Assembly (NCBI RefSeq): GCF_900129405.1
Contig: NZ_FQVQ01000009.1
Coordinates: 1 to 64,000 of the forward strand
DNA from: Flavobacterium fontis
GTDB taxonomy: Bacteria > Bacteroidota > Bacteroidia > Flavobacteriales > Flavobacteriaceae
Direction of reading: 5' to 3'
DNA: 64,000 nt
In this document: in pieces, positions 29,336-33,573 of the stretch
Layout of the letters: each line of letters begins with the position of its first letter
Position numbering within the stretch: position 1 is the stretch's first letter
Position numbers and translations under genes: made by a program
Notes under the pieces: generated by a model
Told to the model about the DNA's origin: nothing
Database searches by the model: none
The model's input: the letters and a program-made list of their open reading frames with translations, nothing else

Positions 29336-29369
29336 AAAAAAAGCCGTCTCAAAACTGAGGCGGTTTTTT
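29336..29369 (+). terminator. Rho-independent terminator after the barrel receptor gene
   Basis: Stem GCCGTCTCA/TGAGGCGGT (two wobbles) followed by T run. Its first 19 bases recur exactly at 33538. Confidence 0.85.
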
Positions 29370-29686: not shown

Positions 29687-30133
29687 TTATTGAAAAATAA
29701 CCGGTTTTGATGACTTTGGTATTTTGACGATGTGATAAGGTTGAACAACAGCATTAAAACAATTGTTAATATCACCCGAACTTGAATATTGTACTGTAAT
29801 ATTATTTTCATATTCAGTTATACTATCAATATTAATGGAAAAATTTGTACACGGCCTTTCATCATCAATAATTGCAATGATATCATAATTAACAAAATCT
29901 ATGGTAGTTTGTGCAAATGTATTTGAGACAGAATTCATAGAACTTAGTAAAGTATTCCAATCTGTTTGATTTGTTATTTTTAATGAAATTTGTGTTAAGC
30001 CAGAAATGTCATTCCCCTTGCCAATTAAAACAGGAGTTATTGTTACAGGCACAAAAGGTGAAGGTGTATTGTCACTTTCACTACAGCTGTTTAAAGTGAT
30101 TAAAGTTATGATTGCAAAAAATAATGTTCTCAT
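29687..30133 (-). CDS. PrcB-like lipoprotein
   Basis: A 148-residue lipoprotein starting at ATG 30133 (MRTLFFAIITLITLNSC, lipobox LNSC, lipidated C17). An upstream ATG at 30157 would bury the signal sequence. After a short linker the protein contains ITNQTDWNTLLSSM, then NYDIIAIIDDERP, NNITVQYSSSGDINNC and the closing PYHIVKIPKSSKPVIF. The closing block matches the PrcB C-terminal domain pattern (cysteine, then PYxIVKIPK). In Treponema denticola PrcB is a lipoprotein needed for the subtilisin-like dentilisin complex. Here it directly follows a subtilase gene with 10 bases between. Domain assignment is from motif memory, not search. Confidence 0.65.
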   Translation of the reverse strand: MRTLFFAIITLITLNSCSESDNTPSPFVPVTITPVLIGKGNDISGLTQISLKITNQTDWNTLLSSMNSVSNTFAQTTIDFVNYDIIAIIDDERPCTNFSINIDSITEYENNITVQYSSSGDINNCFNAVVQPYHIVKIPKSSKPVIFQ

Positions 30134-30143
30134 AATGTTTTTA

Positions 30144-33041
30144 TTAATGTTTAACAAATGTTTTAGCGTCTAGTATTTGTCCGTCACATACAAGGGCAAC
30201 GGTGTAAAAACCATTTTGAAAGTAGCGTACATCTATATTCTTGCATGTAGTATTCAAATCTAAAATATAATTATTTGAAGTGGATGCATTGCCATAATAA
30301 CCAATAATCATCAAATAGGCAGAACTAACTTCATTTAGTTGATAACTCACTTCAATAGTTTCTGACGCAGGATTTGGCGTTATCATGTTGAGATAGCTTG
30401 GTTTTATTTTTACTTCTATTTCACCATAATCTTTATATCCATCAGCCAGCGCAATTACTTCTAATCTATATTTTTTGGCAACATCGGCATCTACTGTTAA
30501 ATCTTTGCCTTGATATACCAGATTATTTTCGATATCATACCAATTATAAATAGCTGCTTCATTTATTTGTTCCGCATATATCGTAATGACATCATTTTTA
30601 TCTACTTCTTTATCAGCACCCGGATTTGCAATAAATAAAGGTCTAGATTTTTTCTTAACTACATAAGTTTCGCCACCAATAATTTTATTTGTCCCTGTTT
30701 CACGTTGTATTACATGATATACATACTTAGATTTATTAGTTATTTCTTCAGTAAGAAAATTAAACTTAAGATATAATGCTCCTATTTCTTTAGGATTAAA
30801 CTCTACATCTTGCAAAAATACATGGTTGCCTTTTATAACTTTTATTTTATCCTCTACTGTATTTTCCAAACGTTCAGCTTTTTTACCCCCACGAACCCAT
30901 GCTTGGTATAAAACCTCGTCCATTTTTAAGGTTACCTCTGCTTCTTCATATATAGGTTTACCGGTTTCTAAATCTTCTTTCACTAACTCCAAATAAAATG
31001 ATTTGGGTGTATCAAATGTGTTGCCAACAGCAATAACACCACCTATCGTTTGTTTTGTAGGATTATCGGTTTCTAAGTCAACAATAGTTATGTTTTTCCA
31101 AGCAATGTTATTATTATTAATTACGTTTTGAACTAAATCTGGTGTTTCAGGAAAAGTCATTTCATCAATAGCTGAAACAATTCTAGCTAACAAACAAAAA
31201 TGCCATGGTTCTGAAAAAATCCCGTTATATATTGCAGGGTTTGGCACTGTAAATGGCATATGCATTATCACCTCTTCACCCGGTTGTAGTACCGGAATAA
31301 TAACATTACCTATTGTGTTTCCTAATAAAATGGAAGTATTTCCATTAAATGTGGCTCCGTTCCACATTTCAGGCCAGTTTAAACCCGTAGATGCTTTTGC
31401 CCAATAGGTGTTTAATCTTTCTGTACCCGTAGTTGCTTCACAACCATTATTTTTAACTCTTACATAAATATAATTGGGAGTCGTTGCGCTATATTCAGGA
31501 TTTTGATGATCTAAACCACCATCCTGATAGTTTCTAATCCAAATATCTTCACTCGCCCAAAAATATTGTGTTGTTGTATTGGGTTCTTCCCCTGTTTCTG
31601 AAGGTGAATCTTTTATGACTAAGTCTAATCCTTTGTAACGTAATTGTGCTTCTAAAACTGCCTGATAGGTGTTTAATCTACCATATCCAAACTCTAACGA
31701 TTTTCCGGGAAAGTCAGCATTATATTGATAATCGTAACTTCCAACTTTTTCCGCTGTAGAGGCCAATATATCCTTTATTTCTAGTTGCGATAAACAAGGG
31801 TTAATAGACAACATTAAGGCAATTGTTGCAGAAACCATTGGTGAAGAAAAAGATGTTCCAGTACCTTGGTTTGGGAAGGAATATGAGTTGTTTACAGATG
31901 TACTAATTGTACCTACTCCAGGAGCAACAATAAACAAATTTTCTCCATAACAAGAACCTAACCATTTTTGATCATTTTGATTACTAGCTCCAACACCCAG
32001 AACCTTTGGATGATTAGCTGGATATGTCACTGTATCAACTCCATAATTACCAGAAGAACATACAATAATAGCTTCGTAATTATCATAAGCATACTCAATA
32101 GCATCATTAATTGCCGTACTTGAAGCACCCGATACAGTTAACTGAATTATTTTAGCTCCTTTTTCACAAGCGTATAAAATAGCATCATCTAATGATATAA
32201 AACTAGGATTTGTGTCTCCTATATTAATAGTAAGCAATTTACATCCGAGATTATTCCATCCTCCAGCTATTCCAGCAATACCTTTATTATTATTTGTTTT
32301 TGCACTTACTATTCCTGCTATTCTAGTACCATGCGGATTTGAAATCGGTCTTGAATCATTATTATTTAATGGAAAATTCCAACCTTTCCAATCGTCAATT
32401 AACCCGTTGTTATCATCATCAATGCCGTTTCCAGTTTGAGGATTATTCGGGTCTGACCATGCATCTTCTCCGGGATTGAAATATATATTTTGATAACCAT
32501 CTGTACCAAGTCCCAAATCTTCATGCGTCCAATCTGTACCTGAGTCTATCAAAGCTACAACTAGACTAGGTTTTCCAGTTTCAATGTCCCAAGCTTCTTT
32601 AGCTTGAATTCTATCTAAAGCCCATTGATTTGATTGTTGCGTATCGTTTGAGGTTTGATCATATTTCCCATAAGTAGGTATTTCAAGATGAGAAACAATA
32701 TTTTCACTAACAATGTTGGCAGATCGTTGAAAGATATCTAAGTTTTGATTAACTTGAAAATCATACCATCCCGTAGCAGCTTTTCTAATAAAAGTTAAAT
32801 TTTGTGCTACTATAAAATTTTGAATAGCGGCATCTGAGGTTTCATCAGTAAATTTTATGGTAATTTGATTGTCAATAACTTGATAATATTGAAGATCAGA
32901 TGTGTTTAATACTCTCCAATGATTATCAACCTTGATGTAGTTTTTATTTTGAAAAATTTTTTGTGCTTCTTCTTGTCCATAAAAATGGAAATTAGTCATT
33001 AAAAGCGATAATAAAATTAAATTCAACAATCTGATTTTCAT
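30144..33041 (-). CDS. T9SS-exported subtilisin-like serine peptidase
   Basis: A 965-residue secreted S8A protease. Signal peptide about 1-22; N-terminal pro-region about 25-130; catalytic domain about 135-465 with D166 (ALIDSG), H237 (NPHGTRIAG), oxyanion N332 (SSGN) and S397 (GTSFSSP). An insert with the calcium-like pattern NGIDDDNNGLIDDWKG sits between Asp and His. The middle (about 470-870) holds beta-rich modules of unknown type. The C-terminus (about 885-965), beginning NMITPNPASETIEVSY and ending KTFVKH, is a T9SS type A sorting domain. The gene is noticeably more AT-rich than its neighbours (33 G+C in 32101-32200), hinting at later acquisition. It likely heads an operon with the PrcB-like gene. 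Confidence 0.92.
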   Translation of the reverse strand: MKIRLLNLILLSLLMTNFHFYGQEEAQKIFQNKNYIKVDNHWRVLNTSDLQYYQVIDNQITIKFTDETSDAAIQNFIVAQNLTFIRKAATGWYDFQVNQNLDIFQRSANIVSENIVSHLEIPTYGKYDQTSNDTQQSNQWALDRIQAKEAWDIETGKPSLVVALIDSGTDWTHEDLGLGTDGYQNIYFNPGEDAWSDPNNPQTGNGIDDDNNGLIDDWKGWNFPLNNNDSRPISNPHGTRIAGIVSAKTNNNKGIAGIAGGWNNLGCKLLTINIGDTNPSFISLDDAILYACEKGAKIIQLTVSGASSTAINDAIEYAYDNYEAIIVCSSGNYGVDTVTYPANHPKVLGVGASNQNDQKWLGSCYGENLFIVAPGVGTISTSVNNSYSFPNQGTGTSFSSPMVSATIALMLSINPCLSQLEIKDILASTAEKVGSYDYQYNADFPGKSLEFGYGRLNTYQAVLEAQLRYKGLDLVIKDSPSETGEEPNTTTQYFWASEDIWIRNYQDGGLDHQNPEYSATTPNYIYVRVKNNGCEATTGTERLNTYWAKASTGLNWPEMWNGATFNGNTSILLGNTIGNVIIPVLQPGEEVIMHMPFTVPNPAIYNGIFSEPWHFCLLARIVSAIDEMTFPETPDLVQNVINNNNIAWKNITIVDLETDNPTKQTIGGVIAVGNTFDTPKSFYLELVKEDLETGKPIYEEAEVTLKMDEVLYQAWVRGGKKAERLENTVEDKIKVIKGNHVFLQDVEFNPKEIGALYLKFNFLTEEITNKSKYVYHVIQRETGTNKIIGGETYVVKKKSRPLFIANPGADKEVDKNDVITIYAEQINEAAIYNWYDIENNLVYQGKDLTVDADVAKKYRLEVIALADGYKDYGEIEVKIKPSYLNMITPNPASETIEVSYQLNEVSSAYLMIIGYYGNASTSNNYILDLNTTCKNIDVRYFQNGFYTVALVCDGQILDAKTFVKH

Positions 33042-33537: not shown

Positions 33538-33573
33538 AAAAAAAGCCGTCTCAAAATTGATATTGAGACGGCT
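33537..33573 (-). terminator. Rho-independent terminator after clpX
   Basis: Perfect 11-base stem AGCCGTCTCAA/TTGAGACGGCT, eight-base loop, then T run on the minus strand. Confidence 0.92.

What the first reader, a model, noticed from the sequence alone, without database searches (positions are those of the whole stretch)
29687..33041. Subtilase paired with a PrcB-like lipoprotein: possible dentilisin-like surface protease complex exported by T9SS
Seen: a 965-residue subtilase with full D166/H237/S397 triad and a T9SS type A tail is followed after 10 bases by a lipoprotein whose C-terminal block (cysteine, then PYHIVKIPK) fits the PrcB C-terminal domain. Known: in Treponema denticola the lipoprotein PrcB is required for the stability of the subtilisin-like PrtP complex. 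Inference: the lipoprotein may anchor, mature or protect the secreted protease at the cell surface. A T9SS-exported version of such a partnership would be new to me.
Basis: partly seen in the sequence, partly recalled or inferred. Interest (0 to 1): 0.62.

Follow-up and report, generated by a model that had tools for sequence, protein, structure and literature searches.

The report
Surface protease and lipoprotein gene pair
A secreted protein-cutting enzyme gene and the small surface-lipoprotein gene right behind it look like a two-gene unit inserted as a block, and related bacteria carry similar enzyme-plus-small-partner pairs with the partner swapped, which suggests, but does not show, that the partner restrains or holds the enzyme.

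Summary
A 965-aa subtilase (30144-33041, -) with intact triad is followed after 10 bases by a 148-aa lipoprotein whose C-terminus passes the Pfam PrcB_C cut-off (28.1 vs 24 bits). The T9SS tail is marginal in this protein (17.9 vs 27 bits) but supported by relatives.

The dentilisin reading is only partly supported: PrtP far below its cut-off, no PrcA, reversed order. PrcB_C as such does not mark a protease partner: of the 30 best PrcB_C loci in the genus sample, 0 hold a subtilase within 1.5 kb and 29 hold bshA. An accessory subset does pair: 12 of 85 lipoprotein genes of this type (10 of 398 genomes) lie within 1.5 kb of such a protease, all on its strand.

The slot beside the subtilase varies: this lipoprotein, another small lipoprotein, a 220-aa T9SS protein or, in 10 of 11 fetched cases outside the genus, an unrelated 'NTWYL' T9SS protein. 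The window unit is an AT-rich apparent insertion between clpX and a TonB-like gene, flanked by a 23-nt repeat whose core is found nowhere else in the genome. Closest anatomy: Tannerella KLIKK protease/potempin pairs. Inhibition versus anchoring is unresolved.

The parts
30144..33041 (-). subtilase (S8), 965 aa: signal peptide, N-terminal stretch taken as prodomain (about residues 23-142, inferred), catalytic domain, C-module, T9SS-like tail
31680..32564 (-). Peptidase_S8 domain, residues 160-454, triad D166/H237/S397
   Evidence: PF00082 120.3 bits; motifs
30402..31643 (-). C-module (residues 467-880), shared with other subtilases and with HExxH metallopeptidases
30183..30377 (-). T9SS sorting-tail-like region, residues 889-953
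   Evidence: PF18962 17.9 bits, below the cut-off of 27; 22.9 bits six-frame
29687..30133 (-). lipoprotein, 148 aa, Cys17, acidic residues at +3 and +5 (cysteine = +1)
   Evidence: export-signal comparison with passages of PMC5080379
29717..29878 (-). PrcB_C domain, residues 86-139 of the lipoprotein
   Evidence: PF14343 28.1 bits, cut-off 24
29336..29358 (+). left copy of a 23-nt direct repeat, in the terminator-like stem after the TonB-like gene
   Evidence: core AGCCGTCTCA found nowhere else in the genome
33538..33560 (+). right copy of the 23-nt direct repeat (22 of 23 identical), in the terminator-like stem after clpX

Best explanation
The two genes are one accessory unit, probably acquired horizontally: a T9SS-exported, surface or secreted subtilase and its cognate small partner. 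The subtilase would cross the inner membrane by its signal peptide and the outer membrane by its C-terminal tail. The lipoprotein would be anchored in the outer membrane, probably facing outward (polar and acidic residues after the cysteine), where it meets the protease. I think it most likely binds the protease's catalytic region and restrains it, or shields the producer's own surface from it, as the small lipoproteins beside Tannerella KLIKK proteases are reported to do. Shown here by computation: the genes, the domains, the recurrence and strand agreement of the pairing, the signs of insertion, the exchangeable partner slot. Inferred: export route and topology, physical binding, inhibition.
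For: Pairing recurs: 12 of 85 lipoprotein genes of this type (10 of 398 genomes) lie within 1.5 kb of an S8 or C-module protease, all 12 on the same strand; controls: 0 of the 30 top PrcB_C loci and 0 of 40 lipoprotein loci from other genera of the family hold an S8 match. In 7 genomes the lipoprotein is directly downstream, gaps 5-84 bases (window 10; others). Partner slot: of 17 C-module subtilases of the genus survey, 7 have this lipoprotein (6 downstream, 1 upstream), 2 another small lipoprotein, 2 a 220-aa T9SS protein, 1 the NTWYL protein, 5 none of these; of 11 fetched outside the genus, 10 have an NTWYL-type protein. Partner labels need 6 changes on the catalytic-domain tree and 8 on the C-module tree (24 proteins); where the trees conflict, the NTWYL partner of L188 and the small-lipoprotein pair L183/L184 go with the catalytic domain. 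Two such lipoproteins stand in tandem behind a bare tail remnant in L225, and one stands before a tail-like piece in L003. Export-signal-like residues. KLIKK precedent: passages.
Against: 73 of 85 lipoproteins of this type have no such protease within 1.5 kb, many for a dedicated inhibitor; a few of them lie at contig ends, so a neighbour may be hidden. The PrcB label does not favour the catalytic-domain tree (5 changes on either tree), and the window's catalytic domain is only 34-39% identical to those of the other PrcB-paired subtilases in the comparison and groups with partnerless L275. 5 of 17 C-module subtilases of the genus have none of the four partner types. The studied PrcB is needed for, and does not inhibit, its protease. 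No significant sequence or fold match to a known inhibitor: profile search of the PDB, fold search with a low-confidence model. Potempins themselves were not compared. The tree argument rests on two informative cases, and the support for L188's place in the module tree is moderate (93/83).
Confidence: 0.4

Rival explanations
1. PrcB-like helper: the lipoprotein is needed for folding, maturation or retention of the subtilase at the cell surface and is a stable part of the active complex.
For: PrcB_C domain over cut-off; in T. denticola PrcB interacts with PrtP and a non-polar prcB deletion leaves PrtP undetected (passages of PMC8167434); tight downstream position.
Against: Only the 56-position C-terminal domain is shared; not a PrtP equivalog, no PrcA, opposite order; unrelated partners in the same slot; most lipoproteins of the type stand without the protease.
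Confidence: 0.3
2. Hitchhiker: the lipoprotein belongs to an abundant accessory family and lies beside the protease only because both sit in mobile or variable regions.
For: Most copies are orphans (73 of 85); copies lie in tandem or among other small lipoproteins (L137, L156, L172, L233); flanking repeats suggest insertion.
Against: Same strand in 12 of 12 and directly downstream within 84 bases in 7 genomes; far more adjacency than my rough chance rates; the gene neighbourhoods of the paired units mostly differ.
Confidence: 0.19
3. Adaptor: the lipoprotein presents substrates to the protease or targets it, rather than inhibiting it; the alternative partners would be other accessories of a degradation unit.
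For: Alternative neighbours include a leucine-rich-repeat T9SS protein beside the metalloprotease of L186 (similar-looking ones beside L189 and L193, by my reading) and a PNGase-F-like protein beside L191.
Against: No substrate-binding domain recognised in the lipoprotein.
Confidence: 0.1

Closest known systems
KLIKK proteases and potempins of Tannerella forsythia
   Same: T9SS-exported proteases of different catalytic classes (three serine, three metallo) with a shared C-terminal region, each beside a different small lipoprotein gene (passages of PMC4404884 and PMC7296668)
   Different: there the lipoprotein gene precedes the protease; here it follows in 7 of 10 paired genomes. The window protein ends in KTFVKH, not KLIKK. 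Inhibition is reported there, untested here. No potempin sequence was compared.
Dentilisin complex (PrcB-PrcA-PrtP) of Treponema denticola
   Same: subtilase-family protease plus a lipoprotein; the PrcB_C domain is named after PrcB
   Different: PrtP model 93.9 bits vs cut-off 300; no PrcA; lipoprotein last; protease carries a T9SS-like tail
PrcB_C lipoprotein beside bshA, common in the genus
   Same: same domain, small lipoprotein; one copy also in the window's own genome (G000:C19:145062-145226)
   Different: of the 30 best-scoring loci none holds a subtilase within 1.5 kb, 29 hold bshA

Membership tests
PrcB_C domain family (PF14343) | score over Pfam's cut-off | tested here: met
   28.1 vs 24 bits. 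Of 9 further lipoproteins of the accessory type scanned, 3 pass (L122, L166, L225), 3 score below the cut-off (L128, L160, L123), 3 have no PrcB_C hit at E<=0.1 (L141, L158, L175); the bshA-side copy L198 passes (45.7)
Dentilisin complex | protease is a PrtP equivalog (NF033595) | tested here: not met
   93.9 vs 300 bits
Dentilisin complex | three-gene order prcB-prcA-prtP | tested here: not met
   two-gene unit, lipoprotein last, neighbours clpX and a convergent TonB-like gene; the order is
Dentilisin complex | lipoprotein required for protease stability | not testable with these tools
   needs a deletion mutant
KLIKK-potempin pairs | protease C-terminus ends in KLIKK | tested here: not met
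   ends in KTFVKH
KLIKK-potempin pairs | lipoprotein gene directly precedes the protease gene | tested here: not met
   it follows here; it precedes in L175, L169 and L174
KLIKK-potempin pairs | lipoprotein inhibits the neighbouring protease | not testable with these tools
   needs an assay
KLIKK-potempin pairs | sequence or fold kinship of the lipoprotein with potempins | tested here: inconclusive
   no match better than E 0.13 to a solved chain with profile A3; model pLDDT 66.8, best Z 3.2; no potempin sequence at hand
Subtilase family S8 | domain over cut-off and D/H/S triad | tested here: met
   120.3 vs 21.8 bits; motifs
T9SS cargo with sorting tail (PF18962) | tail over the Pfam cut-off | tested here: inconclusive
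   17.9 vs 27 bits; 9 of 10 related pieces at 18.4-27.0; SprA in the genome

The most novel reading that the evidence does not exclude
Flavobacteriaceae carry a polymorphic, mobile protease system: one exported C-terminal module is recombined with different catalytic domains (several subtilase clades, HExxH metallopeptidases), and each catalytic type brings its own small exported 'guard' protein in a fixed operon slot. This would be a T9SS protease counterpart of polymorphic toxin-immunity cassettes, with the PrcB-like lipoprotein as one of at least four unrelated guard families.
Probability: 0.2. Interest if true: 0.75.

Novelty: new variant of a known kind. Interest (0 to 1): 0.5.

Why it matters
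T9SS-exported proteases act at or near the surface of the cell that makes them; in the papers seen here, how the producer restrains them is described for Tannerella only. A recurrent protease-plus-partner unit in Flavobacteriaceae, with several unrelated partner families in one slot and signs of insertion as a block, gives a set of natural experiments on protease restraint or anchoring. It would also give a testable function to an accessory subset of PrcB-like lipoproteins, most of which lie nowhere near a subtilase.

Tried and rejected
Dentilisin membership was rejected (PrtP cut-off, no PrcA, order). 'PrcB_C always marks a protease partner' was rejected. 'The pairing is absent from relatives', suggested by comparing the coordinates, was not accepted: searches found it in others.

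Structure: the lipoprotein model from A1 had pLDDT 47.9; a trimmed relative (L003 first, alignment A5) had 66.8 for the best of five models, the other four 33-45. Foldseek gave nothing at E<=0.001; the best VIA row, a NigD-like protein, had Z 3.2, in the range that the tool calls common. Nothing is concluded from it. PDB searches of the lipoprotein, of profile A3 and of the small lipoprotein of L184 gave no significant match; profile A4 of the NTWYL proteins matched chains only over the tail region. A viral-contig scan found no relative. In the lipoprotein tree the 15 paired rows are scattered: 13 changes, shuffled mean 14.3, 67 of 500 shuffles as low. Tree versions with muddled domain borders (and in part) were replaced, which leaves out L141 and L191 because no border was found. 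Paper searches on 'PrcB family protein'/Flavobacterium, T9SS/subtilisin/inhibitor/lipoprotein, T9SS/polymorphic toxin/immunity, protease/immunity protein/T9SS/Flavobacterium and PrcB/Bacteroidetes: I saw no paper on this pairing among the rows listed; the lists were capped and the library lacks most subscription papers. The Tannerella potempin paper that I recalled is not held. What I saw: passages of PMC8167434, PMC7296668, PMC4404884 and PMC5080379; of other papers only listings and starts of abstracts.

Limits: the chance rate of 0.0024 and the expectation of 1.3 loci are my assumptions, not measured nulls. In one search at most 9 candidates per genome were scored and the weaker matches were not all listed; the 85 listed rows of at least 50 bits were all examined. 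In one search four weak or fragmentary rows were not fetched. Gene neighbours rest on my own ORF caller and S8 detection on a profile grown from the window's subtilase. In one search, 3 of 300 random draws within the window also gave a 19-base repeat and one gave 15; I take the three to straddle this same repeat but did not check. On recheck for this report I lowered the best explanation from 0.42 to 0.40, because in L181/L004 the contig starts at the lipoprotein, so it does not show a lipoprotein that outlived its protease; hitchhiker went to 0.19 and the novel case from 0.22 to 0.20.
Full report
1. What is there. On the minus strand, 30144-33041 encodes a 965-aa subtilase with signal peptide, S8 domain (120.3 bits) and intact D166/H237/S397; 10 bases later a 148-aa lipoprotein starts (30133-29687) whose residues 86-139 match PrcB_C at 28.1 bits, over the cut-off of 24. 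The subtilase's tail is below the Pfam cut-off for a T9SS sorting domain (17.9 vs 27), but 9 of 10 related protein pieces scanned match the same model at 18.4-27.0 bits, and the genome has SprA and 64 tail matches at E<=1e-3. The neighbour upstream on the same strand is clpX, 542 bases away and followed by a terminator-like stem; the downstream neighbour is a convergent TonB-like gene, also with a terminator-like stem (gene names by my reading). So it is an isolated two-gene unit.

2. Not dentilisin. The PrtP equivalog model gives 93.9 bits against 300. Dentilisin is prcB-prcA-prtP, and after a non-polar prcB deletion PrtP is not detected (passages of PMC8167434). Here there is no PrcA and the lipoprotein is last. 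PrcB_C matches occur in 81 of 101 genomes of a genus sample; of the 30 best-scoring loci, read with up to 1.5 kb on either side, 29 hold bshA and none a subtilase. The domain name therefore does not prove a protease partner. Nor do all paired lipoproteins carry a clear PrcB_C domain: of 7 others scanned, L122 and L166 pass, L128 and L160 score below the cut-off, L141, L158 and L175 show no PrcB_C hit at E<=0.1.

3. The pairing is nevertheless real in an accessory subset. The four-row alignment A1 lists 85 lipoprotein genes of at least 50 bits in 398 genomes of the genus. All 85 were examined (regions and the window); 12, in 10 genomes, lie within 1.5 kb of an S8 or C-module protease, all on the same strand: downstream in G000 (the window), G367, G334, G171 (two copies), G320, G228 and G258; upstream in G072, G264 (two copies, beside a metalloprotease) and G263. 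Seen from the protease, 8 of 22 C-module proteins above 270 bits have such a neighbour, against about 0.05 expected at my assumed rate of 0.0024. In other genera of the family, 54 of 299 genomes have lipoproteins of the type; none of 40 fetched loci holds an S8 match, one has a bare T9SS-tail remnant in front of two copies (L225).

4. The slot is exchangeable. The 17 subtilases among those 22 have as close neighbour: this lipoprotein 7, a 110-123-aa lipoprotein without Pfam hit 2 (L183, L184), a 220-aa T9SS-tailed protein 2 (L182, L187), a T9SS-tailed NTWYL protein 1 (L188), none of these 5 (L161, L190, L191, L192, L194). Of those five, L191 is followed by a PNGase-F-like protein and L161 has a partial lipoprotein-like frame (39.3 bits, 62 aa) some 0.4 kb upstream. 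Outside the genus, 17 of 299 genomes were tallied for the module, the window's own among them; of 11 subtilases with the module in the loci fetched, 10 are followed within 3-19 bases by an NTWYL-type protein (L261, L262, L264-L271), L275 is not (for L269 the gap is read). The module also sits on HExxH metallopeptidases.

5. Catalytic domain and C-module recombine. L166 and L161 are 72% identical in the catalytic domain and 38% in the module; L166 and L183 are 43% and 66%; the window and L182 39% and 58%. On trees of 24 proteins the partner label needs 6 changes on the catalytic tree and 8 on the module tree; shuffled mean 11.9 on either. The informative cases are L188 (its module groups with the genus at 93/83) and the pair L183/L184 (sisters at 100/100 in the catalytic tree, apart in the module tree): there the partner goes with the catalytic domain although its gene lies next to the module's end. 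The PrcB label shows no preference (5 and 5), and the window is an exception, its catalytic domain grouping with that of L275, which has no partner. Suggestive, not decisive.

6. The unit looks like an insertion. G+C is 29-36% in the 500-base steps over the unit against 39-48% in 14 of 16 flanking steps. In G013 (L283) clpX is followed directly by a relative of the TonB-like gene (56% identity over 475 residues) with one hairpin between; among the 25 clpX loci fetched, one of them the window's own, it was the only one with that gene in reach. The unit is bracketed by a 23-nt direct repeat (22 of 23 identical) lying in the two terminator-like stems; its core AGCCGTCTCA has three matches in the 3.08-Mb genome, all here. 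In G320 the subtilase-lipoprotein unit is bracketed by a 458-base direct repeat, the duplicated 3' end of a HAD-like gene (L158; name by my reading). Of 16 units tested, the longest exact flanking repeat was 19 in the window, 115 in L158, 24 in L188 (right after its two NTWYL genes) and 9-15 in the other 13. Of 15 other units, 10 have the G+C of their flanks to within 1.1 points, L158, L188 and L268 are 4.4-6.1 lower, L128 and L160 3.2-4.8 higher; so an AT-rich unit is not a general feature.

7. How it may work. The lipoprotein's residues after the cysteine (S-E-S-D) resemble the polar-acidic surface-export signals reported for Bacteroidota (consensus SDDFE for F. johnsoniae; passages of PMC5080379); of 109 lipoproteins of the fetched loci in which a cysteine was found, 64 have at least two acidic residues at +3 to +7 (the script takes the first cysteine after residue 12, sometimes the wrong one). 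Protease and lipoprotein would then meet on the surface. Tannerella KLIKK proteases, with a common C-terminal region and different catalytic domains, are each beside an unrelated small lipoprotein gene (passages of PMC4404884), described as specific inhibitors (passages of PMC7296668, which cites unpublished work). The anatomy here is parallel; I therefore rank 'guard or inhibitor' (0.40) above 'PrcB-like helper' (0.30), 'hitchhiker' (0.19) and 'adaptor' (0.10). Lipoproteins beside tail pieces without a protease (L225 with two copies; L003, where the piece lies behind the lipoprotein and runs to the locus end) fit a guard that outlives its enzyme, but also a hitchhiker; L181/L004 has such a piece too, but its contig begins at the lipoprotein.

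8. Verdict. A real gene pair and a right domain call, but not the closest analogue. A new variant of a known kind (T9SS protease with an adjacent small lipoprotein), with an exchangeable partner slot, domain recombination and signs of insertion as a unit.

Noticed in passing
window 29336-29358 and 33538-33560: 23-nt direct repeat in two terminator-like stems bracketing the unit; its core occurs nowhere else in the genome, which looks like a duplication made on insertion.
   Followed up: partly
L158 2157-2614 and 5946-6403: 458-base direct repeat (3' end of a HAD-like gene) bracketing a subtilase-lipoprotein unit; the insertion mechanism is unknown.
   Followed up: partly
L158, L003, L004: A unit (L158) and lipoproteins with tail-like pieces (L003, L004) lie near genes that read like phoH, purC or an M42 peptidase; possibly an insertion hotspot. 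Gene names are by my reading.
   Followed up: no
L005-L034; also L198-L200 and many of L239-L260: The best-scoring PrcB_C lipoproteins sit beside bshA (bacillithiol synthesis), 29 of 30 in the genus loci; I found no explanation of this link.
   Followed up: partly
L191 2078-3166: A PNGase-F-like protein follows a C-module subtilase on the same strand.
   Followed up: no
L137, L156, L172, L233: Tandem or clustered small lipoproteins, some of this family, without a protease in the fetched stretch.
   Followed up: no
G000:C11:64046-71122, just beyond the window's end: sprA of the T9SS lies 46 bases beyond the end of the window.
   Followed up: no
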